Positions 33,501 through 64,000 of a stretch of 64,000 nucleotides of DNA are shown in pieces (within the stretch, counting starts at the first letter, position 1; the number at the start of each line of letters is the position of its first letter). The notes under the pieces are model-generated. The model saw only the letters and a program-made list of their open reading frames with translations, did no database searches and had not been told where the DNA came from. The stretch comes from Aureimonas phyllosphaerae (GTDB lineage Bacteria; Pseudomonadota; Alphaproteobacteria; Rhizobiales; Rhizobiaceae), in the NCBI RefSeq assembly GCF_900113065.1, contig NZ_FOOA01000001.1:558001-622000 (forward strand). Reading direction: 5' to 3'. The translations under genes were made by a program, and so were the position numbers.

Positions 33501-33630
33501 GTAACGATCTAGAGCTGCGCAAGGGGGCTCGCCTATGGGCAATTTCTCGACGCGGCGCACTCCGCGCTTGCGCTGCGGCAAACGGGATGGTTTGAGGCAG
33601 CACCTTCCCCTGCCGACCTGGAATTTTCGC

Positions 33631-49544: not shown

Positions 49545-50465
49545 TCAGTCGATAGGCTCGCCCGCATGTCCCGAAGCATCGGCCTCGCGGAATGCACGCA
49601 AGTGCCGCTTCATGTCCGCGACCCGTTCCTTGTGGCTGGGGGCGCGCGTCATCGCGACGCTCGTCGACAGGATGTCGATGACGACCAGTGCGGCGATCCG
49701 AGACGTGGTCGGCGTGAAGGCATTGGTGTTGTCGTGGGTGCGCACGACGAGGGCGACATCGCAACACTCGACGAGCGGCGAGTCCGCTCCGACCAGCCCG
49801 ATGACCTTCGCGCCGGCCGTGCGGGCGGTCTCGGCCACGCGCAGGATCGCCTGCGTCCGCCCGGTATTCGAGATCACGAAGGCCACGTCGTCCGGCCCCA
49901 TCATGGAAGCGGCGATGAACTGCTGGTGCGGATCGACCTGCGCGCCGCAGGGCACACCGAACAGCGGAAACTTCTGCTGCGCGTCGCGCGCGACGATGCC
50001 GGAGGCGCCGAGGCCGAAGAACTCGATCGAGCGCGCGCGGCCGAGCAGCCTGACGCTCTCGTTGAGGGCAGCGCGGTCGAGATGGGTGCGCGCCCAGTCG
50101 AGGCTGGTCATCGTATAGTCGAAGATCTTCTCCGCCACCGCCTCCGGCGGATCGCTGTCGAGCAGCACCGAATGCGTCGCGGGCACGCCGAGCGCCAGCG
50201 CCTGCGCCAGCCTCAGCTTGAAGTCCGAGAAGCCGTCGCAGCCGACCGCGGTCGAAAAGCGCACCACGGTCGGCTGGCTCACCGAGGCCAGGGCTGAAAG
50301 CTCCGCGATCGTCGCGCCGAGGACCGAGCGCGGATCGGACAGGACGGCGTCGGCGACCTTGCGCTCCGACTTGCGCAGATCGGGACGCGCGGCGCGCACG
50401 ACCTCGATGATGTTGGCGGCCGACACCTCCCGCGTCTCCCTGCGATCCTCGCGCTGCATCGCCAT
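49545..50465 (-). CDS. RpiR-family transcriptional regulator (HexR-like), copy 1
   Basis: A 306-aa RpiR regulator: N-terminal HTH (about residues 40-80, IAELSALASVSQPTVVRFST, VGCDGFSDFKLRLA) and a SIS phosphosugar-binding domain (about 130-270, FFGLGASGIVARDAQQKF, VAFVISNTGRTQAILRVAE). It follows the AroE-like gene on the same strand by 66 bp and likely controls phosphosugar-responsive promoters such as those with TARTWTTRCTAYRT sites. Confidence 0.93.
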   Translation of the reverse strand: MAMQREDRRETREVSAANIIEVVRAARPDLRKSERKVADAVLSDPRSVLGATIAELSALASVSQPTVVRFSTAVGCDGFSDFKLRLAQALALGVPATHSVLLDSDPPEAVAEKIFDYTMTSLDWARTHLDRAALNESVRLLGRARSIEFFGLGASGIVARDAQQKFPLFGVPCGAQVDPHQQFIAASMMGPDDVAFVISNTGRTQAILRVAETARTAGAKVIGLVGADSPLVECCDVALVVRTHDNTNAFTPTTSRIAALVVIDILSTSVAMTRAPSHKERVADMKRHLRAFREADASGHAGEPID

Positions 50466-50531
50466 CCCACCTGCCGCCCCCGATCGCCGGCCCCCGAAAG
50501 CTGCCGTCCCGGCGAACAGTCTCGCCCCGCC

Positions 50532-51482
50532 TTAGGCCTTCGCCGCCCGGATCGCGATATCGGAGATGGCGTCGAAGCCCGCGCCCGACGTCGGGATCGG
50601 CGTCTCGAACACTTCGGCGATCACCTGCGTCCAGCCGTGGAGGAAATAGGTCCATCCGTCCTCGACGCGCAAGGCGCGCTCGGCCGCCTGCCGCCGCGCC
50701 TGCTCGAGGAAGACGAGGTCGCCCCGATAGTTGAGGTCCCAGGCGATCGCCTCGTGGGGGAAGAGCGCCCGGTCGGTGAGCGGCGAGCCCGGCGCATCCT
50801 TGCCAAGGCCCGTGGCGTTGACGACGAACGAGCCCGGTTTCAAGGCTCGCAAGACCTCGTCGTTGGTGGTCGACGTGTCGACCAGCACGTACTCGACCGG
50901 CATCGCGGGCGCCATCTGCCGGTGAACCGCGCGGATCTCGTCGAGGCGATGGGCACTGCGGTCGGAGACCACGACGCGCGAGGGCACGTCCCGGCCCCGG
51001 TCGGCGCGCATCAGGTGCCATGTCATGGCGATCGTGGAGCCGCCTGTCCCCATCGCGAAGAACTCCGCCCCCGTGCGGGCGAAATGGCCGGGCTCGAGAA
51101 AGCCGTCGATGGCGAGCCCCGACGAGATCGGATCCTTGGCATGGCAGACGAGCTTGCCGTCCCGCTTCGAGATGCAACTCGTCTCGCCCATCAGGCTCGC
51201 ATGCGGATCGACGACGTCGAAGAGGTCCCGCGCGGCCTGGAACAGGTCGATCTTGTGCGTCGTGACCAGCGCGCCGAGCGAAAGCGGATCGTCGCGGATG
51301 AACTCGACGGCATCCCGGTAGGCGGACGCCTCGGCATGAGGCGGGAAATCGATGCCCCGGATCGCCGCGTCGCGAAGGCCGAGATGCGCGGCCCAGGCCG
51401 GAAACACCTTAATGATCGAGCTCTGGCCCGTCGTGACGCCGATGAAGTGGAGCGTGGGCCGGGTCGCGGGTGCGTAGGTCAT
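50532..51482 (-). CDS. Shikimate/quinate dehydrogenase-like protein
   Basis: A 316-aa protein of the AroE superfamily. The substrate-domain lysine motif is LGALVTTHKIDLFQAARDLF (cf. VTxPxK), and the NADP-binding loop is FFAMGTGGSTIAMTWHLM with NATGLGKDAPGSPL downstream. The catalytic context differs from housekeeping AroE, and the gene sits between a cupin phosphoglucose isomerase and an RpiR regulator, so a sugar-acid or cyclitol dehydrogenase role is more likely. The start at 51482 overlaps the isomerase stop by 4 bp. Confidence 0.82.
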   Translation of the reverse strand: MTYAPATRPTLHFIGVTTGQSSIIKVFPAWAAHLGLRDAAIRGIDFPPHAEASAYRDAVEFIRDDPLSLGALVTTHKIDLFQAARDLFDVVDPHASLMGETSCISKRDGKLVCHAKDPISSGLAIDGFLEPGHFARTGAEFFAMGTGGSTIAMTWHLMRADRGRDVPSRVVVSDRSAHRLDEIRAVHRQMAPAMPVEYVLVDTSTTNDEVLRALKPGSFVVNATGLGKDAPGSPLTDRALFPHEAIAWDLNYRGDLVFLEQARRQAAERALRVEDGWTYFLHGWTQVIAEVFETPIPTSGAGFDAISDIAIRAAKA

Positions 51483-52102
51483 GCCGCGGCCCCCATCAGG
51501 GCCTGGACCTCCGACGGCGTCCGCGGTCGATACGCCGCGTTCTCCGCGAGGCGCCAGCCGCCGCCTTCGCCACGCAGCACCCGGTGGCGCATTCCGCCGG
51601 ATCGCTCGATGATGCCGTAGTCCTGCCCGGCATCTGCGGGATAGGCGAACATCATCACGAAATCCCCCTCGCCCGTATTGATCGAGCGGTGGATCCAAAA
51701 CGGCGGGACGTAGCAGATCGTCTGGGGTCCGATCTCGACGATGCGCGTCTCGCCCTCCGGCGACTCCAGTTGCATCAGTCCTTGGCCCGCCTGGCCGTAG
51801 TAGATTTCGGGACGGTCGGCCTTTGCGTGGATGTGGCCGCGGGTCAGAAAGAATTCCTCGCCGACCAACCCGGGGGACATCCGGGTCAGGCCAAAGATCA
51901 TGTCGCCGGCCGCGGCGGACGGGCGGAAATCTCCCACGTCGTAGACCACGGCATCGCCAGTGCGCGTCACAAGGTCACGATGGGCGTCGGCGTCGAGATA
52001 CAGGCCCGTGAGGTCGCTTAGCCGCTTCTGGTAACGTCCGCCCGCCCCGCCCATCGTCCCGGCAGCGAGGTCGACATGACAGCTTGCAGGCTCGGTCAGC
52101 AT
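51479..52102 (-). CDS. Cupin-type phosphoglucose isomerase-like protein
   Basis: A 207-aa cupin resembling archaeal-type glucose-6-phosphate isomerase. Metal ligands are in RGHIHAKADRPEIYYGQAGQG (HxH...E) and the later His in PPFWIHRSIN; GDMIFGLTRMSPGLVGEEFFLT precedes them. Archaeal cPGI interconverts glucose 6-phosphate and fructose 6-phosphate; a paralogous aldose/ketose substrate is possible here. It is the first gene of a three-gene minus-strand unit with the AroE-like and RpiR genes, 37 bp downstream of operator A. Confidence 0.85.
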   Translation of the reverse strand: MLTEPASCHVDLAAGTMGGAGGRYQKRLSDLTGLYLDADAHRDLVTRTGDAVVYDVGDFRPSAAAGDMIFGLTRMSPGLVGEEFFLTRGHIHAKADRPEIYYGQAGQGLMQLESPEGETRIVEIGPQTICYVPPFWIHRSINTGEGDFVMMFAYPADAGQDYGIIERSGGMRHRVLRGEGGGWRLAENAAYRPRTPSEVQALMGAAA

Positions 52103-52138
52103 GGATACTGCTCCTCAATGTCGGCATCGTATAAGAGG

Positions 52139-52153
52139 TAATTTTGCTACATA
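52139..52153 (-). promoter_or_regulatory. RpiR-regulon motif, site A
   Basis: TAATTTTGCTACATA, in the divergent region between the cupin-PGI unit and the FGGY kinase. It matches sites B, C and D at 11 or more of 15 positions (shared form TARTWTTRCTAYRTW). It is flanked symmetrically by CATCGT (52125-52130) and ACGATG (52155-52160). Confidence 0.6.
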
Positions 52154-52285
52154 GACGATGATCAAGGGCATACGCAACGGGGCAAAACTACAGGCGATCA
52201 TGGGTTCCGTAGCCCTCTTGGGCCAACGGCTGGCGGTTGACCGCCCAGTTTTCAGTACCTAAGCTACACAGCTTGGAGGCCGATC

Positions 52286-52381
52286 ATGCACATCAACCTC
52301 GCCGCAGCTGTCGCAGGAATGCTTGGCGACGTCTCATGCTTCCGCGCTTCCGGTCGATCCCGCATGACGCGCCGAGACTGA
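52286..52381 (+). CDS. 31-aa leader ORF upstream of the FGGY kinase
   Basis: ATG at 52286 has a strong GGAGG site (GGAGGCCGATC-ATG) and runs 31 codons (MHINLAAAVAGMLGDVSCFR...MTRRD) to a TGA at 52379-52381, 9 nt before the kinase start. The kinase's own ribosome binding site (GAGG, 52380-52383) overlaps this stop, so translation of the two may be coupled. No function is recognisable; it may be a chance ORF that serves as a translated leader. A dyad AAGCT-ACAC-AGCTT (52261-52274) precedes it. Confidence 0.4.
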   Translation: MHINLAAAVAGMLGDVSCFRASGRSRMTRRD

Positions 52382-52390
52382 GGCACGCTC

Positions 52391-53893
52391 ATGCGCAGCG
52401 ACGATCTCATCCTTGCCATCGACGTCGGAACCGGCAGCGTCCGGGCCGCGCTGGTCGACGCCTCGGGTCACATCGTCTCGATCGTCGCGCGCGAGCATGA
52501 TCAGATCGTGCCGCAGTTCGGCTGGTCGGAGCAGCGGCCCGCCGACTGGTGGGAGGGTGTCGTCACGGCCGTCCGCGGCGTTCTCTCCGCCGTCCCGGAC
52601 GCCGCCGGTCGCATTGAGGCGATCTGCGCCTGCGGCCAGATGCATGGCACCGTCCTCGTCGATGCCGACGGACAACCGACGCGCGACACCGTCCCCCTGT
52701 GGAACGACAAGCGCACGGCCGGTCTCGTCGGCGCATTCGAGGAGGCCAACGCGGCGCAGACCTATCTTGCCCGCACCGGCAACCCGCCGACGCCCGCCTG
52801 GCCCGCCTTCAAGCTGCAATGGATCCGGGATGCCGATCCCGACGCCTACCGGCGCGCCGCTGCCGTGATCATGCCGAAGGACTACGTCAACTTCCGCCTG
52901 ACCGGCGAGATCGAGATGGATCGGACGGAAGCGGCCTGCTCCTTCCTGATGGACCCACGCACCGGCGACTGGTCGCCCGAAATGGTGGATCGGCTCGGCC
53001 TCGACCTCCAGAAGCTCGTGCCGATCCGCGGGGCGATGGAGGTGCTGGGGCGCGTCACACGCCAAGCCGCCATGCAGACGGGACTGCGCGAGGGAACGCC
53101 GGTGCTGGTCGGCGGCGGCGACTATCCCGTGGCCCTCGCCGGATCCGGCGTCCTCGCGCCGGGGCTGGGCTCCGAGATGATCGGCACCTCCTGCATCGTC
53201 ACGACGATTGCCGACCGGCCGATCCTCGCCCCCGAAATCTCGAATGTCGGGACGGTGGACGGCGCGTGGGGCGCATTCATGCTGCTGGAAAGCGGCGGCG
53301 ACGCGATGCGCTGGGCGCGCCGGGCACTGCACGAAGGCACAGTCTCCTACGAGACCATCGTCGAGCGAGCGGCGGAAGCGCCGCCCGGTTCCGACCGGCT
53401 GTTCTTCGTCCCGTACCTCACCGGCGAGCGCTTCGGCCGCCATCGCAACGCCCGTGCGCAGTTCTTCGGGCTCGCCGCCGGCCACGGCCTCACGCACCTC
53501 CACCGCGCCGTCCTCGAGGGCGTCGCCTTCGCGGTCAAGCGGCACATCGACGTCATGGAGGCGAACGGCGGGCCGCGCGTGGAACGGCTCGTCGCCTCCG
53601 GAGGCGGCGCGCGCACCGACCTGTGGCTGCGGATCAAGGCCAGCTGCTACGGCATCCCGATCCTCGTGCCGCAGGAAGCCGAATGCGGGATCGTCGGTTG
53701 CGCCGCCATGGCCGCAACGGCGATGGGTCGGTTTCCCAGCCTCACCAATGCGGCCGCAGCCTACGTTTCCTTCGAGCGCGAGGTGAGCCCCGAGCCGCGC
53801 TGGGCGGAGACCTACCAGCGCATGCAGCCGGTGTTCGAACGCCTCTACCATCATTCGCAGGCGCTCTACGACGACCTCGACGCGCTCGCCTGA
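52391..53893 (+). CDS. FGGY-family carbohydrate kinase
   Basis: A 500-aa sugar kinase with the two-domain actin-like fold: N-terminal LAIDVGTGSVRAALVDASG, PLWNDKRTAGL, the catalytic Asp region VGGGDYPVALAGSGV, and the C-terminal FGGY signature region RLVASGGGARTDLWLRIKA. Xylulose, ribulose, erythritol or glycerol are all possible substrates. It is divergent from the cupin-PGI/AroE-like/RpiR unit and shares operator A. Its start has GAGG 7 nt upstream. Confidence 0.9.
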   Translation: MRSDDLILAIDVGTGSVRAALVDASGHIVSIVAREHDQIVPQFGWSEQRPADWWEGVVTAVRGVLSAVPDAAGRIEAICACGQMHGTVLVDADGQPTRDTVPLWNDKRTAGLVGAFEEANAAQTYLARTGNPPTPAWPAFKLQWIRDADPDAYRRAAAVIMPKDYVNFRLTGEIEMDRTEAACSFLMDPRTGDWSPEMVDRLGLDLQKLVPIRGAMEVLGRVTRQAAMQTGLREGTPVLVGGGDYPVALAGSGVLAPGLGSEMIGTSCIVTTIADRPILAPEISNVGTVDGAWGAFMLLESGGDAMRWARRALHEGTVSYETIVERAAEAPPGSDRLFFVPYLTGERFGRHRNARAQFFGLAAGHGLTHLHRAVLEGVAFAVKRHIDVMEANGGPRVERLVASGGGARTDLWLRIKASCYGIPILVPQEAECGIVGCAAMAATAMGRFPSLTNAAAAYVSFEREVSPEPRWAETYQRMQPVFERLYHHSQALYDDLDALA

Positions 53894-53942
53894 TGGCAAG
53901 CGCCGCGAGATGGGTCGCAGTGCCCCGCCTGCCTGACGGGCG

Positions 53943-56354
53943 TCAGGCTCGACGACGCGCGTCGCTCGGGAAGGAAGGGCTTGCGCCGAGCCGTTGATCC
54001 GTCGGCGCGATCGCCTCACGGAAGCGCGCGAGCGGCATCGGCTTGCCGAAGAGATAGCCCTGCCCCTCGCTCATGCGATCGCGGAGATAATCCGCCTGCG
54101 CCTGCGTCTCGATGCCCTCCGCGATGACGTCGAGATCGCATCCGCGTGCCATTCGAACGACGGCGTCGACGATGCCCTGATCCTTCCCGTCGATCGTGAT
54201 GTCGCGCACGAAGGACCGGTCGATCTTCAGGCGCGTGATGTCGAGCTGCTTCAGGAAGGTCAGTGAAGCGTAGCCCGTTCCGAAATCGTCGAAGGCAATG
54301 CCGACATTCATGCGGCGCAGACGCGCAAGGTGATTGGCGATCGTGCGCTCGTTGCGCAGGACCGTGTTCTCGGTGATCTCGAGCTCCAGCGCCTCGGCGG
54401 GCAGCCCGCTCGCCCGCAGCGCCTCCTCGACGCGCTCCACGAGATCGGGTGCGCGAAGCTGCGCGGCGAAGAGGTTCACCCCGATGCGGAAGTCGCCATG
54501 CCCGGCCCGCCGGATCGCCACCGCATCCTGGCAGGCCTTCGACAGGATCCAGTCGCCGACGGGCAGCGTCAGCGGACCCGCTTCGAGCACCGGAAGGAAG
54601 GATACGGGCGACAGGACGCCGAGATAGGCGTGGTTCCAGCGGATCAGTGCCTCGGCACCGACGACACGATCGTCGGCGAGGCGGACCTGCGGCTGGTAGT
54701 AGAGTTCGAAATTGCGCTCCTCCCATGCCTCGCGCAGATCCTCGGCGACGCTGAGGCGGTCCTTGGCGGCCTTTCGAAGCTCGGGCGTGAAGAGGCGGAG
54801 CCGCGCGCGGCCGTTGGCCTTCGCGTCGAACAGCGCAAGATCCGCGGCGAGCATGAGTTCGTCCGCCGACATGGCCTGCAACTGGGAAGGCATCAGCCCG
54901 CCGCTGGCGGACAGGTGCACGATCTCGTCACCGAGGGCGATCGGAAGCTCGGTCGCCTCGATCAGCCGTTGGCCGAGCCGCGAGACCTCGATCGGATCGG
55001 CGGTTCCCCGCACGACCACCGCGAACTCGTCACCGCCAAGACGGGCGACGAGGTGATCGGCACCGACGACCTCGCGCATGCGCCGCGCTACGACCCGCAG
55101 AACCTCGTCGCCGCCCGCATGCCCGAAGGCGTCGTTGACGTCCTTGAAGCCGTCGAGATCGAACAGCATCAGGCTGAAGGGGGTGCGCGCCTTGCCATGC
55201 TCCTCGATGCAGGTCGCGATGGCCTCCTGGAACCGGGCCCGGTTCGACAGGCCCGTCAGGGTATCGGTGTAGGCGAGCGTTCGAATGCGCTCCTCGGCGG
55301 ACAGGCGCTCGCTCTGGTCACGAAAGGCGATGACCGTCTGGAGGCTGCCGGCGAGGCGCACGTCGCTGCGCAAAACGCGCACCGGCACGAACGGCCCGAG
55401 GCGCGTGGCCAGCCTGGCGTCGATCTCCTCGCGCTCCGGCAGGGCGGCGAGGTCGAGGCCCGGCAGCAGCTCGGACAACTCGCGCCCCGCAAGGTCGTCG
55501 CGCGACAGGCCGGTCAGGCGCGCCAGGCTGTCGTTCGCGGTGACGATCCGGCTTCCTTCGCAGATCGCGAGCCCCTCCAGCCCGAGATTGGCCAGTTCGC
55601 CGAGACGCCGCCGCTCGTAGCGCAGCTTCGCCTTGGCCGCGATCGTGAGCCGGAGGCCGATGACCGCGATGATTGCCAGCCCCGACGACATCGTGGCGAC
55701 GAGCGGCGCGAGAAGTTCGGGCGGCACCGTCCAGGCCGGAAGCTGCACGCGCGGATCGAACTCCAGCGTCATCGCGACCATGCCGCCGATATGCAGGATG
55801 CCGATGGCCAAAACGAGAAGCGGGGCGCCGGTCAGGTTGATCCACCGTGTCCGCTCGACGGAGGCCAGCGTCGCGAGACCGAAGAGCGGGAGGCTGGCGA
55901 GGATGGTGGTCCAGACGATCGCAAGGTCCCAGTGGACGTGGCCGCGCACCACATAGGCGGCCTGCCCGACATAATGCAGCACGGCAACGCCGAGGCCGAT
56001 CACCACGCCGCCGACGAACCGCCTCCAGCGCTCGCGCCGTCCGAGCGTCAGCATCAGGCCGGCGCCGATCCCGACGATTGCCAGGAGAAGCGAGAGCGCC
56101 GTCGTGACGGGCTCGAAACCCGCCTCCATTCCCGGACGGAAGGCGAGCAGTGCGACCATATGGGTGGCCCAGGCGGTGCAACCGGCGGTGACCAGCGACA
56201 GGATCGCCCATTGCCGCCGGGCCGCGCCGTCGCGTCGACCGGCATGCCGCGCGACGGAAAACGAGCCGTAGACGCCGATCAGGCACACCAGGGCCGCCAG
56301 CGTCAGCAGCTTTGGATCGTTCAGGACACCGAGGCAGGTCAGCAGGACGTTCAT
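53943..56354 (-). CDS. MHYT-GGDEF-EAL cyclic-di-GMP signalling protein
   Basis: An 803-aa membrane protein. Residues about 8-230 form an MHYT sensor with seven helices (motif variants WATHMVALL, LHYVGQ, LHIGGMVAM). A PAS-like segment (about 245-345) follows, then GGDEF (about 355-520, active site RLGGDEFAVV intact) and EAL (about 535-785, VVGAEALIRWN, ELEITENTV, FDDFGTGYASL). It can in principle both make and degrade c-di-GMP; MHYT domains are proposed to bind copper and sense gases. AGGAGGAGCG precedes the ATG. Confidence 0.93.
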   Translation of the reverse strand: MNVLLTCLGVLNDPKLLTLAALVCLIGVYGSFSVARHAGRRDGAARRQWAILSLVTAGCTAWATHMVALLAFRPGMEAGFEPVTTALSLLLAIVGIGAGLMLTLGRRERWRRFVGGVVIGLGVAVLHYVGQAAYVVRGHVHWDLAIVWTTILASLPLFGLATLASVERTRWINLTGAPLLVLAIGILHIGGMVAMTLEFDPRVQLPAWTVPPELLAPLVATMSSGLAIIAVIGLRLTIAAKAKLRYERRRLGELANLGLEGLAICEGSRIVTANDSLARLTGLSRDDLAGRELSELLPGLDLAALPEREEIDARLATRLGPFVPVRVLRSDVRLAGSLQTVIAFRDQSERLSAEERIRTLAYTDTLTGLSNRARFQEAIATCIEEHGKARTPFSLMLFDLDGFKDVNDAFGHAGGDEVLRVVARRMREVVGADHLVARLGGDEFAVVVRGTADPIEVSRLGQRLIEATELPIALGDEIVHLSASGGLMPSQLQAMSADELMLAADLALFDAKANGRARLRLFTPELRKAAKDRLSVAEDLREAWEERNFELYYQPQVRLADDRVVGAEALIRWNHAYLGVLSPVSFLPVLEAGPLTLPVGDWILSKACQDAVAIRRAGHGDFRIGVNLFAAQLRAPDLVERVEEALRASGLPAEALELEITENTVLRNERTIANHLARLRRMNVGIAFDDFGTGYASLTFLKQLDITRLKIDRSFVRDITIDGKDQGIVDAVVRMARGCDLDVIAEGIETQAQADYLRDRMSEGQGYLFGKPMPLARFREAIAPTDQRLGASPSFPSDARRRA

Positions 56355-56611: not shown

Positions 56612-56641
56612 TGCAACGTTTATTACCTGGGAACTGAAGAC

Positions 56642-57415
56642 CTACCAGGCCGTATAGCCGCCGTCCGCCAGAACGATGGAGCCCGTCAGGAGGCTGGCCG
56701 CATCGGAGGCGAGAAAGAGCACGGTGGCGGCGATCTCGTCCGTCCGGCCCATGCGGCCCATGGGCGTACCGCCGATCCAGTGCTTCATCATCTCCGGGTC
56801 GTCGTAGACGAAGCTGGTCAGCGCGGTCTCGATATAGGTCGGCGCCACCGCGTTGACCCGCACGCCCCGGCCGCCCCACTCGGCGGCGAGCGACTTGGTC
56901 AGGTGATGCACCGCCGCCTTGGATGCATTGTACTGGGCCTGCTCCTGCGGCCGGTTGACGACGAAGCCCGACATCGAGCCGACATTGACGATGGCGCCCT
57001 GCCCGCGCTCCAGCATGGATTTGCCGAAGGCACGGCAGCACCAGAAGACACCGTTGAGGTTGACGTCGAGAACCTTCAGCCACACCGCGTCGGACATGGT
57101 TTCCGCCGGCTCGTTGCTGATCGCGATGCCGGCATTGTTGACGAGGACGTCGAGCCGGCCGTGCCGGGCGAGAACGTCGTCGCGCAGGGCGTCGACCGCT
57201 TGGGGCGACGTCACGTCGAGCCGGACACCCTCCGCGCTGCGGCCGTCGGCCATCAGGCGCTCGGCCGCCTCCTCGGCCTTCTCGACCGCAAGATCGGCGA
57301 GGATGACGTGGGCGCCGGCCTCGGTCAGGGCTTCGGCCGTCGAGAATCCGATCCCCTGTGCAGCACCCGTGACGAGGGCGATGCGGCCGTCGAGGCGGAA
57401 GCGTTCAAGATACAT
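56642..57415 (-). CDS. Short-chain dehydrogenase/reductase (polyol or sugar dehydrogenase type)
   Basis: A 257-aa classical SDR: cofactor motif LVTGAAQGIGFSTAEAL, Asp after strand 2 (VILADLAVEKA) indicating NAD preference, NNAGIAISN, catalytic Ser in VNVGSMSGFV and YNASK. It resembles polyol dehydrogenases of rhizobia. It is divergent from the ALDH operon across 532 bp, and site B lies in its promoter region. The likely role is the oxidation step of the same pathway. Confidence 0.92.
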   Translation of the reverse strand: MYLERFRLDGRIALVTGAAQGIGFSTAEALTEAGAHVILADLAVEKAEEAAERLMADGRSAEGVRLDVTSPQAVDALRDDVLARHGRLDVLVNNAGIAISNEPAETMSDAVWLKVLDVNLNGVFWCCRAFGKSMLERGQGAIVNVGSMSGFVVNRPQEQAQYNASKAAVHHLTKSLAAEWGGRGVRVNAVAPTYIETALTSFVYDDPEMMKHWIGGTPMGRMGRTDEIAATVLFLASDAASLLTGSIVLADGGYTAW

Positions 57416-57693: not shown

Positions 57694-57708
57694 TACGTAG
57701 CAAAACTA
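57694..57708 (-). promoter_or_regulatory. RpiR-regulon motif, site B
   Basis: Minus-strand TAGTTTTGCTACGTA (57694-57708), oriented toward the SDR gene. It differs from site A by two bases. Confidence 0.6.
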
Positions 57709-57871
57709 TTCCAAGACAGCTTTCGATAGCGGCGCGCGGGTCGACGCGCAAGCGCGCGCCGAAAGCCGAATCAAGTCGTCGCACATAGACTTGCGCAGCA
57801 TTCGCTCGAGGAGCTTGGCATTGGCAGTCCGCGCCTGACCAAGGAAGTCCTGATTTCCCGCTTGCGGTATC

Positions 57872-57886
57872 TAGTATTGCTATATT
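57872..57886 (+). promoter_or_regulatory. RpiR-regulon motif, site C
   Basis: TAGTATTGCTATATT, 61 bp upstream of the ALDH start and oriented toward it. It differs from site D by two bases. Confidence 0.6.
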
Positions 57887-57947
57887 AGATCGGATCGAAG
57901 GTGGCCGGCTGCGGCGTGGGCCGCCGGACACGGTGCCAGGACGTCCC

Positions 57948-59405
57948 ATGCTTGCAGCCTACGATTCCCAGCTCTTCATTGCCGGCCAGTGGCAACGCGG
58001 CTCCGGCCGCGCGCTTCCCGTCGAGAACCCGGCGACCGGCGAGGTCATCGGCCACATCGCGGCGGCGACCGCGGGAGAAGTGGACGCCGCCGTCGCCGCC
58101 GCCCGCAGGGCCTTTCGCCCTTGGGCGCGCCTCGCCCCCAAGGAGCGCGGTGCCGCGCTCCACCGCCTCGGTGACGCGATCTCGGCCCGAGCCGATGCCA
58201 TGGCGCGCATCATGACGAGCGAACAGGGCAAGCCGCTCAATGAGGCGCGCGGCGAAATCCTGAAGCTTGCGGAGGCCTGCCATTTCTACGCCGAGGAAGC
58301 CGAGCGCGTGCATGGCGAGATCGTGCCGGGAGCGACCACCGACCATGAGAGCATGGTGGTGCGTGAGCCGATCGGCGTCGTCGGGGCGATCACGCCCTGG
58401 AACTATCCGGCCGAGCTGATCGGCTGGAAGCTCTGCGGTGCGCTGGCCGCGGGCTGCACCATCGTCATCAAGCCGGCGGAACTGACGCCCTTCACGGCGC
58501 TCGCGATCGCCGAAGCCTGCATGGAGGCGAAGATCCCCGCTGGCGTCGTCAATATCGTCACCGGCAAGGGGTCCGAGGTCGGTCAGGCGCTGGTCGAGCA
58601 TCGCGACATCGACAAGATCGCCTTCACGGGCTCCAGCGCGGTCGGTCTTCACATTCAGCGCACGACGCCGATCGTGCGCCGCATGTCGCTGGAGCTCGGC
58701 GGCAACTGCCCGCTGATCGTCGCCCCGTCGGCCGACCTCGACGCCGCGGCCAAGGGCGCGGCGCGTCGCGGGTTCCGCAACATGGGCCAGATCTGCATCG
58801 CGGTGAACCGCATCTACGTCGCGCGCCCGCATTACGAGAGCTTCCTCGACAGGCTGAAGGGCGCGGTCGAGAGGCTCACCATCGCCAACGGATTGGAGCG
58901 GCCCGATGCCGATCTCGGCGCCATGGCCTCGGCCGAGCCGCTGGAGAAGACCAAGGCGCACCTCGCAGACGCTTTGGACAAGGGCGCGCGGCTCGTCGCG
59001 GGCGGCTCGGCGCCGGAGGGCGAAACCTTCGCGCGCGGGCACTTCTTCCGCCCGACCGTCGTCGCCGACTGCACGCACGAGATGAAGGTGATGACGGAGG
59101 AGACCTTCGGCCCGCTGGTCGGCGTCGCGCCCTTCGACACGCTGGACGAGGCGGCGGACCTTGCCAACGACACGCCCTATGGGCTCGCCTCCTATGTCTA
59201 CGCCCGCGACCTGAACGAGGTGCGCGCCCTGTCGCAAAGGCTCGACTACGGCAACGTGGCGGTCAACAACGTCGACGCCGGCGTGATGAACGCCCCCTAC
59301 GGTGGGCGCAAGCAGAGCGGCGTCGGCTACGAGCACGGCCGCGAGGGAATGCTCGAATACCTGAACTTCAAGCACATCCGCATCCGCTACGACGAGGCGC
59401 GGTGA
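57948..59405 (+). CDS. NAD(P)-dependent aldehyde dehydrogenase
   Basis: A 485-aa ALDH. Key residues: PWNYPAELIGWKL, KPAELTPFTAL, FTGSSAVG, catalytic Glu in MSLELGGNCPL and catalytic Cys in RNMGQICIAVNRIYV. It resembles lactaldehyde/succinate-semialdehyde dehydrogenases. The start at 57948 has AGGA 7 nt upstream (a GTG at 57933 is an alternative). It is the first gene of the operon ALDH-xylulokinase-HAD-RpiR-RpiA. Confidence 0.92.
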   Translation: MLAAYDSQLFIAGQWQRGSGRALPVENPATGEVIGHIAAATAGEVDAAVAAARRAFRPWARLAPKERGAALHRLGDAISARADAMARIMTSEQGKPLNEARGEILKLAEACHFYAEEAERVHGEIVPGATTDHESMVVREPIGVVGAITPWNYPAELIGWKLCGALAAGCTIVIKPAELTPFTALAIAEACMEAKIPAGVVNIVTGKGSEVGQALVEHRDIDKIAFTGSSAVGLHIQRTTPIVRRMSLELGGNCPLIVAPSADLDAAAKGAARRGFRNMGQICIAVNRIYVARPHYESFLDRLKGAVERLTIANGLERPDADLGAMASAEPLEKTKAHLADALDKGARLVAGGSAPEGETFARGHFFRPTVVADCTHEMKVMTEETFGPLVGVAPFDTLDEAADLANDTPYGLASYVYARDLNEVRALSQRLDYGNVAVNNVDAGVMNAPYGGRKQSGVGYEHGREGMLEYLNFKHIRIRYDEAR

Positions 59406-59409
59406 TCCC

Positions 59410-60930
59410 ATGACCGAGTGCCTTCTCGGGATCGACATCGGCACCTCCGGCTGCAAGGCGCTTCTCGCCGGGCTGGACGGAACGGTACTCGCGAGCCGGA
59501 CCGAAACCTATCCCCTGTCCCAGCCGCGCCCCGGCTGGAGCGAGCAGGATCCGGCGGACTGGGTGGACGCGACGCGCCGCGCGGTCGGAGCGTTGCAGGC
59601 CGAACGTCCCGGTCTCGTCGTAAAGGCGATCGGCCTGTCCGGCCAGATGCATGGCCTGACGCCGCTCGACGCGGCCCATCGCGTGTTACGCCCAGCGATC
59701 CTCTGGAACGATCAGCGCAACGGGCCGGAATGCGCCGAGGCGACGGAGCGGGCCGGCGGCGAGGAGGCTCTCCTTGCGCTCACCAACAACCGGATGCTGG
59801 TCGGCTATACCGGCGGCAAGATTCTCTGGATGCGTCGGCACGAGCCCGAACTCTTCACCCGCCTCGCCCACGTCCTGAACCCCAAGGACTATCTGCGCCT
59901 CGTCCTCACCGGCGAGCGCGCGAGCGAGGTGTCGGATGCCTCCGGCACTGGCCTTTTCGACACGCGCGCGCGACGCTGGTCGGACGAGCTGCTGCGCCGG
60001 CTCGACCTTTCGCCGGACCTCCTGCCGCCGGTCCATGAATCCGCCGAGATCACGGGCCGCCTCAGCGCATCCGGCGCAGCGCTCCTCGGCCTTCCCGAAG
60101 GCGTGCCGGTCGTCGGCGGCGGCGGCGACGCGGTGATCCAGACGCTCGGCTCGGGCGTCATCGCACCGGGCGAGATCCAGACCACGATCGGCACCGCCGG
60201 GATCGTCGCCTGCGCGCTCGATCGCCCGAGCGACAATCCGGGCGGCCGGCTCCAAGTCTTCTGCAACGTCGATCCCGCCAAGTGGCACTGCATGGGCGTT
60301 TCGCTCAACGCGGGCGGCGCCATGAGCTGGTTCCGCGGCCTTGCGGCCGACTTCGCGGGCGGCGACGCTCCATCCTTCGACGCGCTGGTGGCGCGGGCGG
60401 AGGCAAGCCCGGCCGGGGCGCGCGGCCTTCTGTTCCTGCCCTACCTCTTCGGCGAGCGCTGCCCGCATCCCGATCCCGCCGCGCGCGGCGCCTTCGTCGG
60501 GCTGACCGCCCGCCATGGCGCGGCCGACCTCACAAGGGCGGTGATGGAGGGGGTCGCCCACGGACTGCGCGACATCTTCGCCGTCATGGAAGAGGCCGGC
60601 ATCGCACCCGGCATCGTGAAGGCGTCGGGCGGCGGCGCGCGCTCGCGCCTGTGGCGGCAGATGCAGGCCGACCTTTTCGGCTGCGACGTCGTCACCACCG
60701 AGGGTGCGGCCGAGGGCGGAGCCTACGGGGCCGCGCTTCTCGCTGGCGTCGGCATCGGCGTCTGGCCGGATGCCGCGACCGCTGCCACCGTCTGTCGCCC
60801 GGTGACGCGCGAGACGCCGGATCCGGAAGCCGGTGCCGTCCTCGGGGCGGCCAACCGCATCTATCGCACCCTTCATTCCGCCCTCGCGCAGGCCTCGGCC
60901 GATCTCGGCCACCCGCGGCTGGACCCATGA
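59410..60930 (+). CDS. xylB: Xylulokinase-like FGGY kinase
   Basis: A 506-aa FGGY kinase most like XylB: LLGIDIGTSGCKALLAGLDG, GWSEQDPADWVDA, IGLSGQMHGLTPLD, ILWNDQRN and the catalytic Asp in VVGGGGDAVIQTLGSG. The C-terminal ATP region is VKASGGGARSRLWRQMQAD. It phosphorylates D-xylulose or a related ketose. It starts 4 bp after the ALDH stop and overlaps the HAD gene by 4 bp. A different FGGY kinase (52391) lies in the same regulon. Confidence 0.85.
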   Translation: MTECLLGIDIGTSGCKALLAGLDGTVLASRTETYPLSQPRPGWSEQDPADWVDATRRAVGALQAERPGLVVKAIGLSGQMHGLTPLDAAHRVLRPAILWNDQRNGPECAEATERAGGEEALLALTNNRMLVGYTGGKILWMRRHEPELFTRLAHVLNPKDYLRLVLTGERASEVSDASGTGLFDTRARRWSDELLRRLDLSPDLLPPVHESAEITGRLSASGAALLGLPEGVPVVGGGGDAVIQTLGSGVIAPGEIQTTIGTAGIVACALDRPSDNPGGRLQVFCNVDPAKWHCMGVSLNAGGAMSWFRGLAADFAGGDAPSFDALVARAEASPAGARGLLFLPYLFGERCPHPDPAARGAFVGLTARHGAADLTRAVMEGVAHGLRDIFAVMEEAGIAPGIVKASGGGARSRLWRQMQADLFGCDVVTTEGAAEGGAYGAALLAGVGIGVWPDAATAATVCRPVTRETPDPEAGAVLGAANRIYRTLHSALAQASADLGHPRLDP

Positions 60931-61640
60931 CATTCTTCGGGAGTGCCCTGCCGATGTCCGCATCGCCCAACACCGCCGATGTCCTGATCTTCGATCTCGA
61001 CGGCACGCTGATCGACAGCGCCCACGACATCGCGGCGGCGGTGAACGAATACCTCGCGTCCAAGGGGTGGCCGGAACAGGACCCGGCCTTCGTCGAGGGC
61101 TTCATCGGCAATGGTCCGCGCCGGCTGTTGCTCGACCTCCTGCTGGCGGTCGGCCTGCCGCACGACGACGCGACGGTCGACGAGGCCGTGCCCACCTATA
61201 TCGCCAACTACGAGCGCAGCCCGGCGCGTCACACGCGCTTCTACGCGCATGTGAAGGAGGACCTGCACCGCCTCCGCGAAGCCGGATTCCGGCTGGGGCT
61301 GTGCACCAACAAGCCGCACGCGCTGACGTTGAAGGTCCTTGATCTCCTCGGCATCGCCCCGCTCTTCGAGGCCGTGGTCGGCGCCGACGCCGCGCCGGCC
61401 TGCAAGCCCGACCCCGCCCATCTCCTGGCGGTCTGCGAGCGCATGGGCGCGCCGCCCGCGAGCGTCGCCTATGTCGGCGACACGGCCGTCGATCAGGCGA
61501 CGGCGGCGGCAGCCGGGATTTCCTTTCACGTCGTGCCCTGGGGCGGCGGATCGCTGCTGAAGGTCGACGAGGCCTTCCGGCTCGACCGGCTGGCCGACCT
61601 GATGGCGCTGAAGCCCGCTGCCGCGCGCCGGACCGCCTGA
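60927..61640 (+). CDS. HAD-family phosphatase (phosphoglycolate-phosphatase-like)
   Basis: A 237-aa HAD hydrolase with motif I LIFDLDGTLIDS, motif II LCTNKPHAL, the conserved Lys in PACKPDPAH and motif IV YVGDTAVDQATA. It resembles Gph. In an operon with kinases it may remove a phosphate from a dead-end sugar phosphate or 2-phosphoglycolate. The ATG at 60927 overlaps the kinase stop; an ATG at 60954 with GGGAG upstream is equally plausible. Confidence 0.9.
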   Translation: MTFFGSALPMSASPNTADVLIFDLDGTLIDSAHDIAAAVNEYLASKGWPEQDPAFVEGFIGNGPRRLLLDLLLAVGLPHDDATVDEAVPTYIANYERSPARHTRFYAHVKEDLHRLREAGFRLGLCTNKPHALTLKVLDLLGIAPLFEAVVGADAAPACKPDPAHLLAVCERMGAPPASVAYVGDTAVDQATAAAAGISFHVVPWGGGSLLKVDEAFRLDRLADLMALKPAAARRTA

Positions 61641-61645
61641 CGCCG

Positions 61646-62485
61646 ATGACCACGAGCCTTCTGCAGCGCATTCTGTCGGAGCGCGAGGCCATGGGCGCGG
61701 CGGAGCGGCGCGTCGCCGACGTGGTGGCCACCGATCCGGGCGCGGTGATCCACATGAGCATGGCCTCGCTCTCGCAGAAGTCGGGCGTCAGCGATCCGAC
61801 GATCATGCGCTTCTGCCGACGCTTCGGCTTCGAGGGCTACGGCGACTTCAAGCTCTTCCTGGCGCAGAGCCTCGTCCCGTCCGCGCCCTTCGCCTACGAG
61901 CAGATCATTTCGGGCGACTCCATCGCCAACATCGTGCGCAAGACCGCGCGCAACTCGCTGAACGCCATCCAGCGCGCGCTGGAGGACCTCGAGCCGCCGC
62001 AACTGGAAGAGGCCGCAAGGCGCCTTCAGGCCGCGACCTGGATCGGCATCTATGCCTCCGGCATCTCGGAGATCACGGCACTCGACGCCGAGCACAAGTT
62101 CCAGCGCCTCGGGATCCGCTGCGAGGCGCTGATCGGGCGCAAGAAGCAGTGGCTGCACGCCGAGACCTCGCGGCCCGGCGAGGTCGCGCTGATCTTCTCG
62201 CAGTCCGGCCACACCAAGCAGATGGTCGATATCGCGACGGCGGCGCGCGCGGGCGGCGCACAGGTCGTCTCCGTCACGGCAGCGGACAGCCCGCTCTCGG
62301 CCGTCACCGACGCGCTCGTCGCCGTCGTGCCCTACGACCGGACCGAGCTTCTGACGCCGCTCGCCTCGCGGCTCAATCACCATCTCGTCGTCAACATGCT
62401 CGTCACCTCGATCGCGATGATCGGTGGCAGCGAGTTCCCGGACCAGTTGCCGGCGCTCGATTCCTGGCAGACCGAAAAGATCTGA
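61646..62485 (+). CDS. RpiR-family transcriptional regulator, copy 2
   Basis: A 279-aa RpiR regulator: HTH MASLSQKSGVSDPTIMRFCR followed by RFGFEGYGDFKLFLAQSL, then a SIS domain (GIYASGISEITALDAEHKF, VALIFSQSGHTKQMVDIA). It is embedded in the pentose-type operon between the HAD phosphatase and rpiA, so it is the prime candidate to bind the TARTWTTRCTAYRT sites and sense a pathway phosphosugar. It starts 5 bp after the HAD stop. Confidence 0.93.
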   Translation: MTTSLLQRILSEREAMGAAERRVADVVATDPGAVIHMSMASLSQKSGVSDPTIMRFCRRFGFEGYGDFKLFLAQSLVPSAPFAYEQIISGDSIANIVRKTARNSLNAIQRALEDLEPPQLEEAARRLQAATWIGIYASGISEITALDAEHKFQRLGIRCEALIGRKKQWLHAETSRPGEVALIFSQSGHTKQMVDIATAARAGGAQVVSVTAADSPLSAVTDALVAVVPYDRTELLTPLASRLNHHLVVNMLVTSIAMIGGSEFPDQLPALDSWQTEKI

Positions 62486-62560
62486 CGGCGGACACCCCCT
62501 TTCCGCGCCGCGGCAGAAGGCCCGCGAGCGCAAACAGCTGACGCGCATGGAGGATCTACG

Positions 62561-63274
62561 ATGAGCGCACAGGACGAAGCGAAGCGGGTGGCCGGGCGCC
62601 GCGTCATCGAGGAATTCGTGCGGGACGGGATGAAGCTCGGACTGGGCTCCGGCACCACGTCGCACTTCTTCGTCCGCGAGCTCGGCAAGCACGTCGCCGA
62701 CGGGATGCGCCTCACCTGCACCACGACCTCGCGCGCCACCAATCAGGTGGCGCAGGAATCCGGCATCAAGCTGACCGATCCCAACGAGATCGGCGAGCTC
62801 GACCTGACGATCGACGGGCCGGACGAGATCGATCGCCAGTTCAACATGATCAAGGGCGGCGGCGCCTGCCTTCTCTGGGAGAAGATCATCGCCCACGCTT
62901 CGAAGCGGATGATCACGATCTGCGACGAGACCAAGATCGTTGATCGCCTCGGCAGCTTCCCGCTGCCGGTCGAGGTCGTCCAGTTCGCCTGGAAGCAGAC
63001 GCAGCGCATGGTGGAGGCGACGCTCGGCCACCACGGCATCGGGAACGCGGTGATCGAGCGACGTATGCGCGACGGCCAGCCCGTCGTCACCGACAGCGGA
63101 AACTTCATCCTGGATTGCCGGTGCGGCCCCGTGCTCGACGAGCCGGCGCCTCTCGAGATCGCCCTGAACCGCATCCCCGGCGTCGTCGAGAACGGCCTCT
63201 TCACGCGCGAGTCGTCCGGGATGGTGATCGGCAAGTTCGACGGCACGTCCGACGTGCATCTGCGCAAAATCTAG
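62561..63274 (+). CDS. rpiA: Ribose-5-phosphate isomerase A
   Basis: A 237-aa RpiA: phosphate loop LGLGSGTTSHFFVRELG, TTSRATNQVAQESGI, catalytic Asp/Glu region TIDGPDEIDRQFNMIKGGG and LLWEKIIAHAS. It interconverts ribose 5-phosphate and ribulose 5-phosphate, or a related pair. Location in a catabolic operon suggests a dedicated paralogue beside the housekeeping enzyme. The last gene of the operon; stop TAG at 63272. A 187-bp spacer follows. Confidence 0.9.
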   Translation: MSAQDEAKRVAGRRVIEEFVRDGMKLGLGSGTTSHFFVRELGKHVADGMRLTCTTTSRATNQVAQESGIKLTDPNEIGELDLTIDGPDEIDRQFNMIKGGGACLLWEKIIAHASKRMITICDETKIVDRLGSFPLPVEVVQFAWKQTQRMVEATLGHHGIGNAVIERRMRDGQPVVTDSGNFILDCRCGPVLDEPAPLEIALNRIPGVVENGLFTRESSGMVIGKFDGTSDVHLRKI

Positions 63275-63419
63275 TAAAGCAAGATTTTCGGTCGCCCGCT
63301 GCGATCTCGGGCATTGCCGGAAAAATCGACCGGCCTATCCGCCGAACCGCCCTTATCGACAAGCCTTTTGGGATTTCCACCCCCAACCACGGGACTGCTT
63401 GACGGCCCGCCGAAACGGC

Positions 63420-63434
63420 TAGTATTACTACATT
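63420..63434 (+). promoter_or_regulatory. RpiR-regulon motif, site D
   Basis: TAGTATTACTACATT, 28 bp before the sugar-binding protein start. Its core TAGTATTACTA is a near-perfect dyad. TTGACG (63399-63404) could be a -35, in which case TAGTAT at 63420 would be the -10, so a bound regulator would cover the -10. Confidence 0.6.
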
Positions 63435-63461
63435 CATCGCTCTGGGAGGAGAGAAGAGCCC

Positions 63462-64000
63462 ATGCCACAGATCAATCGACGCCATCTCTTGCAGGCCGGC
63501 GCGGCGCTCGGCGCCACGGCCCTCGTCGGCGGCCGGGCCGCCTTCGCGCAGGAAGGGCTCTTCGTGCCCTACAGCAACAAGAGCCTCGACTACTATTTCT
63601 TCGTGATCCAGGAAGAGGCGGTGAAGCGGGCGGTCGAGGCGCAGAAGTGGCGCTTCCAGGCGACCAACGCGAGCTTCGACAACACGCGCCAGCTCGAGCA
63701 GTGGCAGAGCCTGATGCTGAGCCAGCCGAGCGCCATCGTCTCCGATCCGATCGACAGCCAGGCCATCGTCAGCGCCATCCGCCGCTACAACGGGCGCAAG
63801 ATCCCCGTCGCCATCATCGACACGCCGGCCGACGGCGGCGATGTCGCGATCACCGTCTCCTTCGACAACAAGCTCGGCGGCGTCATGGCGGCGCAGGAGA
63901 TCATCAAGCGCCTGACCGAAAAGCACGGTAGCCCGAAGGGCACGGTGCTGAACTGCTTCGGCGCGCTGCAGAGCGTCGCCTGGCGCCAGCGCAAGGAGGG
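63462..64000 (+). CDS. Periplasmic sugar-binding protein, 3' end outside window
   Basis: ATG at 63462 with GGAGGAGAGAAGAGCCC upstream begins a frame open to the window end (179 codons). The N-terminus MPQINRRHLLQAGAALGATA has a twin-arginine motif and signal ending RAAFAQEG. The rest is a Peripla_BP_4/RbsB-like fold: LMLSQPSAIVSDPIDSQAIV, IPVAIIDTPADGG, VSFDNKLGGVMAAQEI and KGTVLNCFGALQSVAWRQR. It is the binding component of a sugar ABC importer whose remaining genes presumably lie just beyond the window. It is preceded by site D, tying it to the pentose-type regulon. Confidence 0.9.
   Translation, partial: MPQINRRHLLQAGAALGATALVGGRAAFAQEGLFVPYSNKSLDYYFFVIQEEAVKRAVEAQKWRFQATNASFDNTRQLEQWQSLMLSQPSAIVSDPIDSQAIVSAIRRYNGRKIPVAIIDTPADGGDVAITVSFDNKLGGVMAAQEIIKRLTEKHGSPKGTVLNCFGALQSVAWRQRKE

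What the first reader, a model, noticed from the sequence alone, without database searches (positions are those of the whole stretch)
49545..64000. A candidate RpiR regulon: one 15-bp motif in three promoter regions of an unassigned sugar pathway
TAATTTTGCTACATA (52139), TAGTTTTGCTACGTA (57694, minus), TAGTATTGCTATATT (57872) and TAGTATTACTACATT (63420) share TARTWTTRCTAYRTW and stand out in GC-rich DNA. They precede cupin-PGI/AroE-like/RpiR, FGGY kinase, SDR, the ALDH-XylB-HAD-RpiR-RpiA operon and a Tat-exported sugar-binding protein. The combination of an AroE-like dehydrogenase, cupin isomerase, two FGGY kinases, SDR, ALDH, HAD phosphatase and RpiA does not match any textbook pentose or polyol route I can name. 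It suggests an undescribed catabolic system for a pentose, polyol or branched sugar.
Basis: partly seen in the sequence, partly recalled or inferred. Interest (0 to 1): 0.85.

Follow-up and report, generated by a model that had tools for sequence, protein, structure and literature searches.

The report
Two sister sugar-gene switches, related operators
A short DNA signal found four times in this bacterium's genome is probably the landing site for two related sugar-sensing repressors that control two neighbouring sugar-use gene sets, one of which also occurs in many other bacteria and has no known sugar.

Summary
In detail: all four 15-mers are where stated and are the only exact matches in the 4.7-Mb genome. 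The motif belongs to a 15-bp palindrome, TGTAGY-N3-RCTACA. This is the 15-bp operator measured for the RpiR-family protein RccR of Pseudomonas (PMC5489143, passages), and RccR is the closest solved relative of both window RpiR proteins. The box lies ahead of orthologous operons far beyond the genus and depends on its 3-bp spacer (108 hits against 0-8 for 13 other spacers).

The single motif is really two dialects. RpiR1 goes with symmetric boxes at a cupin-PGI/AroE-like/FGGY module; RpiR2 with asymmetric boxes at the ALDH-XylB-HAD-RpiR-RpiA-importer module. Each module occurs without the other, usually with its box. Each regulator has its own fixed residues where RccR holds KDPG.

Module 1 is an uncharacterised cluster (at least 570 AroE-like stretches). 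Module 2 looks like a pentulose route. Protein-DNA binding, effectors and substrates are untested.

The parts
49545..50465 (-). RpiR1: RccR-like RpiR regulator (HTH_6 + SIS), module 1
   Evidence: Pfam; 44% identical to RccR 8k3b; 30/30 aligned members have Q148, L/M152, H164, K270, R277 in RccR numbering
50532..51482 (-). AroE-like (shikimate-dehydrogenase-fold) dehydrogenase, module 1 core
   Evidence: No Pfam match, weak AroE hits below cut-off; model pLDDT 90, best PDB folds are shikimate dehydrogenases and 5-ketofructose reductase 7cok; Lys/Asp pair invariant 28/28
51479..52102 (-). Cupin-type phosphoglucose isomerase, module 1 core
   Evidence: Pfam GPI 177 bits; H90, H92, E99 in 76/76 and H138 in 75/75 aligned relatives
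52137..52151 (+). Operator box, RpiR1 dialect: GGTAATTTTGCTACA (9 of 12)
   Evidence: 34 bases from the cupin start codon
52178..52192 (-). Degenerate second box: TGTAGTTTTGCCCCG (8 of 12)
52391..53893 (+). FGGY sugar kinase, module 1 core
   Evidence: Pfam FGGY; XylB model 340.6 bits, below its 380.25 cut-off
56642..57415 (-). SDR polyol dehydrogenase-like; ortholog in G018 ends the FAH-SerA-like-SDR set divergent to ALDH
   Evidence: closest solved relatives 3awd putative polyol dehydrogenase (1.4e-87) and 2wdz galactitol dehydrogenase (1.6e-68)
57696..57710 (-). Operator box, RpiR2 dialect: AATAGTTTTGCTACG (8 of 12)
   Evidence: boxes in the same gap in L041-L045
57870..57884 (+). Operator box, RpiR2 dialect: TCTAGTATTGCTATA (9 of 12), overlapping a GCTATAT -10-like sequence ahead of ALDH
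57933..59405 (+). Aldehyde dehydrogenase (SSADH-type superfamily)
59410..60930 (+). Xylulokinase-type FGGY kinase
   Evidence: TIGR01312 496.9 bits, cut-off 380.25
60927..61640 (+). HAD phosphatase, phosphoglycolate-phosphatase-like
   Evidence: TIGR01449 175.1 bits, just under its cut-off 180
61646..62485 (+). RpiR2: RccR-like RpiR regulator, module 2
   Evidence: 34% identical to RccR; 18/18 aligned members have H148, R152, D270, I/L277
62561..63274 (+). Ribose-5-phosphate isomerase A
   Evidence: TIGR00021 256.1 bits, cut-off 126.4
63418..63432 (+). Operator box, RpiR2 dialect: GCTAGTATTACTACA (10 of 12); a TTGAC lies 16 nt before its TAGT
63462..64000 (+). Sugar-binding protein of an Rbs-type ABC importer (continues past the window, then ATPase and permease)
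   Evidence: L011 ORFs; PDB hits to ribose-binding proteins

Best explanation
The four sites are operators of two RccR/HexR-type RpiR regulators encoded in the locus. RpiR1 acts at the box between cupin-PGI/AroE-like/RpiR1 and the FGGY kinase. RpiR2 acts at three asymmetric boxes: ahead of the ALDH-XylB-HAD-RpiR2-RpiA operon, on its divergent SDR side, and ahead of the sugar importer. Without sugar the repressor sits on the box, which probably overlaps the promoter core, so the genes and rpiR2 itself are kept low. A phosphorylated pathway intermediate bound in the SIS domain releases it. By this model module 2 imports a pentitol or ketopentose and turns it, via SDR, xylulokinase and RpiA, into pentose phosphates; module 1 phosphorylates a ketose or polyol-derived sugar (FGGY), isomerises it (cupin PGI) and uses an AroE-fold sugar oxidoreductase. 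Shown by sequence comparison: sites, conservation, spacer dependence, dialects, residue signatures. Inferred: binding, repression, effectors, substrates.
For: Four exact genome-wide sites, all here. Half-sites and linker equal RccR's measured 15-bp site TGTAGT-N3-ACTACA (PMC5489143, passages); RccR (8K3B, named in PMC10810197, passages) is the best or second-best solved match of both proteins, with near-identical 8ju9 the other. Box within 1 mismatch upstream of cupin-PGI in 49 of 76 loci (reversed word 1 of 76, shuffles 0.7%, context-swapped shuffles 6.6%), of ALDH in 14 of 17 (0; 0.3%; 3.5%), of the sugar-binding protein in 11 of 15 (0; 0.7%; 4.0%). Only a 3-bp spacer works: 108 against 0-8 at 13 others; RpiR2-type 37 against 0-5 at nine others. 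RpiR2-only loci: 5 of 6 have a box; AroE-only loci: 14 of 15. In the genus, the 6 of 21 genomes with RpiR2 are the six that show these site groups; G006 has module 1, two boxes and no RpiR2. Five Mesorhizobium loci with no RpiR1 in the fetched stretch have no box within 2 mismatches (one of them, L197, is a short stretch). Six of seven Burkholderiales loci carry an exact GATAGY-N3-RCTATC palindrome instead, five of them ahead of cupin-PGI. Dialect: outer G in 53 of 55 module-1 boxes, 3 of 30 module-2 boxes. TTGAC 13-16 nt before the TAG of the box in 15 of 16 binding-protein promoters; box ending in GCTATA at 12 of 18 ALDH promoters.
Against: No binding or expression data. The window's own sites match only 8-10 of 12 consensus positions, and a palindrome search misses three of the four. 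At the cupin gene 14 of 69 loci that have RpiR1 show no box within 2 mismatches and 7 more only at 2: of the 14, seven have a box at an upstream operon start instead, six are Burkholderiales, and L170 is unexplained. L140 has RpiR2 and no box. L145 has an exact box but no RpiR1 in the stretch. Reversed words are common over whole stretches: 43 at spacer 3 and 9-112 at others, 22 against 37, 115 against 10 per strand in the own genome, so position and spacer, not raw counts, carry the case. The RpiR2-type pattern also occurs 21 times in the 80 module-1 loci (reversed 132). In RccR, S139A, H148A and H164A abolish DNA binding (PMC10810197, passages), yet RpiR1 has Q148 and RpiR2 lacks H164. The D270/I277 assignment rests on a MAFFT alignment of a diverged tail that phmmer left unaligned. 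The promoter scan found no sigma-70 promoter at the sites. Sequences are related, so counts are not independent, and cross-binding of both regulators is not excluded.
Confidence: 0.74

Rival explanations
1. One regulon: a single RpiR (or both interchangeably) controls all four sites.
For: The sites share a TAAT/TAGT-N3-RCTA core, and the recognition-helix residues V46, S47, P49, T50, R53, F54 are invariant in both regulators, so cross-binding is plausible. The modules are neighbours in the window and in G004.
Against: Each module occurs with its own box in genomes lacking the marker of the other. Boxes split at the outer base (53/55 against 3/30), matched by helix differences at positions 48 and 56.
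Confidence: 0.2
2. A different DNA-binding protein (for example one of the two other RpiR proteins of the genome, or an unlinked regulator) owns the box.
For: The genome has two more RpiR homologs on other contigs.
Against: The 7-kb stretches around those two carry no box within 1 mismatch. In the Mesorhizobium stretches without RpiR1 the box is missing too.
Confidence: 0.06
3. The sites are promoter elements of AT-rich promoters that look alike, not operators.
For: At RpiR2 sites the box overlaps -10-like sequence (GCTATA) or follows TTGAC.
Against: Palindromy with a strict 3-bp spacer, only four exact sites in 4.7 Mb, and a changed half-site in the lineage with a changed regulator.
Confidence: 0.04

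Closest known systems
RccR of Pseudomonas (RpiR family, KDPG sensor; PMC5489143, PMC10810197, passages)
   Same: HTH_6+SIS architecture, closest solved match of both proteins, same 15-bp half-sites and 3-bp linker, Ser/Thr at the phosphate-contact positions
   Different: RpiR1 lacks H148 and R152, RpiR2 lacks K270 and R277 (R152, K270, R277 are needed for KDPG binding in RccR); no 28-bp box class (2 hits); boxes stand at peripheral sugar operons; RpiR2 boxes are asymmetric
HexR (NCBIfam PRK11302)
   Same: Top NCBIfam hit for both (246.3 and 181.6 bits)
   Different: Both below the 296-bit cut-off; Pseudomonas HexR site is TTGT-N7-8-ACAA (PMC5489143, passages)
Shikimate dehydrogenase (AroE) family, including 5-ketofructose reductase of Gluconobacter (PDB 7cok)
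   Same: Predicted fold, invariant Lys/Asp pair
   Different: No Pfam match, 14-21% identity in the 50 structural alignments shown, encoded with a sugar kinase and isomerase
Pentitol/pentulose catabolic operons (SDR, xylulokinase, RpiA, Rbs-type importer; recalled)
   Same: Module 2 enzymes meet the XylB and RpiA models
   Different: Added ALDH and HAD; divergent Dld or FAH-SerA-like-SDR genes in relatives; binding protein differs from E. coli RbsB at several recalled contact positions

Membership tests
RpiR family | HTH_6 plus SIS domains | tested here: met
   both proteins above gathering scores
RccR | 15-bp TGTAGT-N3-ACTACA operator | tested here: inconclusive
   Comparative evidence strong; binding itself not testable here
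RccR | 28-bp operator class with the same half-sites | tested here: not met
   spacer 16 gives 2 hits, no more than other spacers (module-1 loci, symmetric pattern)
RccR | Nine KDPG-contact residues | tested here: not met
   RpiR1: Q148 and L/M152 in 30/30; RpiR2: D270 and I/L277 in 18/18, position 164 variable
RccR | KDPG as effector | not testable with these tools
   needs binding assays
RccR | Glyoxylate-shunt and aceE targets | not tested
   no exact motif outside this locus, but target promoters were not examined one by one
HexR (PRK11302) | NCBIfam curated score | tested here: not met
   246.3 and 181.6 against 296
AroE shikimate dehydrogenase | Fold and catalytic Lys/Asp | tested here: met
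   the pair was assigned by eye from recalled AroE residues
AroE shikimate dehydrogenase | Curated AroE model scores | tested here: not met
   best hit 36.6 bits against 413
Cupin PGI | GPI domain with metal ligands His-His-Glu-His | tested here: met
   ligand positions recalled from P. furiosus PGI
Xylulokinase TIGR01312 | curated score, protein 59410-60930 | tested here: met
   496.9 against 380.25
Xylulokinase TIGR01312 | curated score, protein 52391-53893 | tested here: not met
   340.6 against 380.25
RpiA TIGR00021 | curated score | tested here: met
   256.1 against 126.4

The most novel reading that the evidence does not exclude
Module 1 is an undescribed, widespread alpha/betaproteobacterial sugar pathway whose smallest form is importer + FGGY kinase + cupin PGI + AroE-fold sugar oxidoreductase. 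One candidate substrate is a keto-hexose such as 5-ketofructose, reduced by the AroE-like enzyme, phosphorylated, and isomerised to an aldose phosphate for the Entner-Doudoroff route. It is controlled by an RccR-derived repressor whose ligand pocket was rebuilt from KDPG to a new phosphosugar, while the operator drifted by single bases between paralogs (outer G to A/C) and lineages (TGTAG to GATAG).
Probability: 0.45. Interest if true: 0.75.

Novelty: new variant of a known kind. Interest (0 to 1): 0.6.

Why it matters
It turns an anonymous sugar locus into a testable pair of regulons with named operators, regulators and predicted changes of the effector pocket. It links an operator measured in Pseudomonas to regulators of peripheral sugar operons in Alphaproteobacteria, where central carbon metabolism is reported to be under CceR and GluR (PMC5507952, passages). 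It offers a natural series (two paralogs, two bacterial classes) for studying how operator and effector specificity diverge. It also flags a catabolic cluster, present in at least 570 genome stretches by its AroE-like gene, for which I found no substrate assignment.

Tried and rejected
Strict palindrome search in the own genome was uninformative: it finds one window site and fewer hits than its reversed control, because the window's sites are degenerate in one half. The sigma-70 scan found nothing at the sites, so promoter overlap rests on the conserved TTGAC and GCTATA sequences. The 28-bp RccR box was looked for and not found. D-ribose as the module-2 substrate is not favoured: several recalled ribose contacts of RbsB are replaced in the binding protein (alignment). 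Erythritol/threitol, apiose and galactitol routes were considered from memory and set aside, not tested. I looked for remnants of FAH, SerA-like and Dld genes between the SDR and the 57694 box and found none.

Absence in print rests on ten searches of an open-licence library. None of the listed papers is on this gene set, but lists were capped (20 of 90 papers shown, 8 of 139, 12 of 13) and only passages of four papers were read (PMC5489143, PMC5343134, PMC10810197, PMC5507952). The 5-ketofructose reductase is known to me here only from a PDB title.

The 2-mismatch site at window 33489 was set aside: it reads TTGTAATGTTATTACGTAAC and looks like a Zur box (recalled). Only 80 of 570 confirmed AroE-like stretches were examined (one search keeps the best 80, biased to close relatives). 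Rows dropped before counts: one search used 76 of 80 loci upstream of cupin-PGI (four without a cupin hit), 17 ALDH and 15 binding-protein regions from 17 module-2 loci (window not among them); one search used 16 of those 17 (L140 left out). The GATAG palindrome was first seen by eye in the same seven loci in which it was then counted; its reversed word occurs once there, and one of eight alphaproteobacterial loci checked (L153) also has one. RpiR2 and AroE absence calls rest on score thresholds and on the best 5-6 candidates scored per genome.
Full report
WHAT IS THERE. A scan of the whole genome (4,709,078 bases, 60 contigs; the window is C43:558001-622000) finds no other exact match; at two mismatches the total is 9 against 18 for the reversed pattern. 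Same-genus genomes G004, G008, G014, G015 and G018 show the same grouping. Reading those loci places two sites in the gap ahead of ALDH in all five and one ahead of the sugar-binding protein in four of five; in G018 the binding-protein promoter has a variant, CTAGTAATCCTACAT, outside the pattern. G015 and G018 also have one at cupin-PGI. G004 has a contig of the same length as one of Aureimonas sp. AU22, so the genus is probably Aureimonas.

WHAT THE MOTIF IS. In annotated plasmids of Rhizobium, Pararhizobium, Sinorhizobium, Marinovum and Paracoccus the site is visibly a palindrome, ATGTAGY-N3-RCTACAT (two of the twelve plasmid loci, L059 and L064, show no clear box, and L066 only a 3-mismatch one). 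This is the 15-bp site found by ChIP-seq and confirmed by SPR and footprinting for RccR of Pseudomonas fluorescens, TGTAGT-N3-ACTACA (PMC5489143, passages). The closest solved structures to RpiR1 and RpiR2 are 8ju9 and 8k3b, whose aligned sequences are the same; 8K3B is the RccR/KDPG complex (PMC10810197, passages). Identity to RccR is 44% and 34%, and between the two window proteins 30%.

CONTROLS. In 80 named loci with the AroE-like gene (the best 80 of 570 confirmed stretches), 60 have a box within one mismatch, 26 of them exact. In the 350 bp upstream of cupin-PGI the rate is 49 of 76, against 1 of 76 for the reversed word, 0.7% for shuffles and 6.6% for context-swapped shuffles. For ALDH it is 14 of 17 and for the binding protein 11 of 15, with 0 for the reversed word and 3.5% and 4.0% for context-swapped shuffles. 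Across the 80 loci a 3-bp spacer gives 108 hits and 13 other spacers 0-8. The reversed word is itself frequent over whole stretches (43 at spacer 3, 9-112 at the others), so spacer dependence and position carry the argument. The asymmetric RpiR2-type pattern gives 37 at spacer 3 and 0-5 at nine other spacers in 16 module-2 loci (reversed 22 at spacer 3). The 28-bp RccR class is absent (2 hits).

WHO BINDS IT. Of 397 order genomes, own included, 11 have an RpiR2 ortholog and 20 the AroE-like marker of module 1; five have both. Boxes within one mismatch occur in 5 of 6 RpiR2-only loci and 14 of 15 AroE-only loci; the misses are L140 and L130, and L130 shows no RpiR1 either. In the genus RpiR2 is in 6 of 21 genomes, the same six that show the site groups. 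G006 has module 1 with two boxes and no RpiR2. Five Mesorhizobium loci with cupin-PGI, AroE-like and FGGY but no RpiR1 in the fetched stretch have no box within two mismatches (L197 is short). Seven Burkholderiales loci with 53-58% identical RpiR1 have no TGTAG box within one mismatch; six carry an exact GATAGY-N3-RCTATC palindrome, five of them ahead of cupin-PGI, the sixth (L202) near the edge of its stretch. Against this: of 69 loci with RpiR1 and cupin-PGI, 48 have a box within one mismatch at the cupin gene, 7 only at two, 14 none; of the 14, seven have the box at an upstream operon start (SDR or GldA), six are Burkholderiales, and L170 (Paracoccus) is unexplained. L145 has an exact box without RpiR1 in its stretch. 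The two other RpiR homologs of the genome have no box in the 7-kb stretches around them.

TWO DIALECTS. Module-1 boxes keep the outer G in 53 of 55 cases; module-2 boxes in 3 of 30, with A or C otherwise (Fisher p 1e-16, sequences not independent). The window follows the split: 52139 has G there, the other three have A or C. The recognition-helix region differs too: RccR position 48 is Q or E in 30 of 30 RpiR1 and D in 18 of 18 RpiR2; position 56 is T, N, A or S in at least 26 of 30 RpiR1 and R in 18 of 18 RpiR2. At the effector positions RpiR1 has Q148 and L/M152 but keeps H164, K270 and R277; RpiR2 keeps H148 and R152 but has D270 and I/L277 (the RpiR2 tail is alignment-dependent). In RccR, R152A, K270A and R277A abolish KDPG binding, while S139A, H148A and H164A abolish DNA binding (PMC10810197, passages). 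So neither is expected to be a plain KDPG sensor, and the natural changes at 148 and 164 must be tolerated if these proteins bind DNA. This is prediction, not measurement.

HOW IT WORKS. TTGAC stands 13-16 nt before the TAG of the box in 15 of 16 binding-protein promoters, and the box ends in GCTATA at 12 of 18 ALDH promoters. The box therefore probably covers the promoter core, 42-77 bp from the binding-protein start, which fits repression; since rpiR2 lies in the ALDH operon, also autoregulation. No consensus sigma-70 promoter was detected by the scan.

THE PATHWAYS. Module 1 in relatives is cupin-PGI, (Eda-type aldolase), AroE-like, (SerA-like), (MBL hydrolase), RpiR1, usually divergent to importer, FGGY, (HAD), SDR and GldA-like genes. 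Of 80 loci, cupin-PGI is in 76, ABC ATPase hits in 73, FGGY in 70, RpiR1 in 70, MBL in 68, SerA in 57, Eda in 47 (some loci are cut by contig ends, and ABC, FGGY and SDR hits may be paralogs). Small versions (Phyllobacterium L186/L191, Inquilinus L180) show importer genes, FGGY, cupin-PGI, AroE-like and RpiR1 without Eda, SerA or MBL hits. The window holds this core without an importer beside it; the own genome has no close MBL ortholog (26%) and no close module-1 binding protein (best 30-32%). The AroE-like enzyme has the shikimate-dehydrogenase fold (pLDDT 90) with an invariant Lys/Asp pair. 5-ketofructose reductase (7cok) is among its top matches, a precedent for an AroE-family enzyme acting on a sugar, though shikimate dehydrogenases score equally. 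Cupin-PGI keeps its His/Glu metal ligands.

Module 2 is conserved as ALDH-XylB-HAD-RpiR2-RpiA plus importer. The divergent side varies: Dld (D-lactate dehydrogenase, PRK11183 842.7 bits) in G014, G015 and G004; FAH-SerA-like-SDR in G018 and in two Paracoccus. The window keeps only the SDR of the latter set. XylB and RpiA suggest a pentulose or pentitol; ALDH, HAD and Dld suggest clean-up of two- or three-carbon side products (inference).

VERDICT. A real, well-supported pair of regulons using a known operator type in new settings, next to a widespread module whose substrate is unknown. The motif is not a new kind; the combination, the two dialects and module 1 are what is new, as far as the ten searches listed under Tried and rejected can tell.

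Noticed in passing
window 33485-33504: TTGTAATGTTATTACGTAAC ahead of a His-rich 605-aa ZinT-like protein (31642-33459, minus; likeness recalled): looks like a Zur operator (recalled), unrelated to the RpiR box.
   Followed up: partly
window 53943-56354 (-): MHYT-GGDEF-EAL signalling protein sits between the FGGY kinase and the SDR in the window; in G004 this stretch between the modules holds other genes.
   Followed up: partly
L044 5114-6814, L043 5383-7074, L041 15690-17453: E. coli-type D-lactate dehydrogenase (Dld) divergent to ALDH in three Aureimonas relatives; not in this place in the window. The own genome has a 55% homolog on contig C34, where no motif within 2 mismatches is listed.
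   Followed up: partly
L045 6384-9308, L055 3194-6070, L061 2171-5050: FAH-hydrolase / SerA-like / SDR set divergent to ALDH with RpiR2-type boxes in the gap: an optional branch of module 2, of which the window keeps only the SDR.
   Followed up: partly
L202, L212, L213, L215, L217, L218: Burkholderiales versions of module 1 carry an exact AACGATAGT-N3-RCTATC palindrome in place of the TGTAG box.
   Followed up: partly
L190 7913-8461 (-): A Mesorhizobium module-1 locus without RpiR1 has a 182-aa ORF near its importer, possibly a SIS-type isomerase without a DNA-binding domain (guess, not tested).
   Followed up: no
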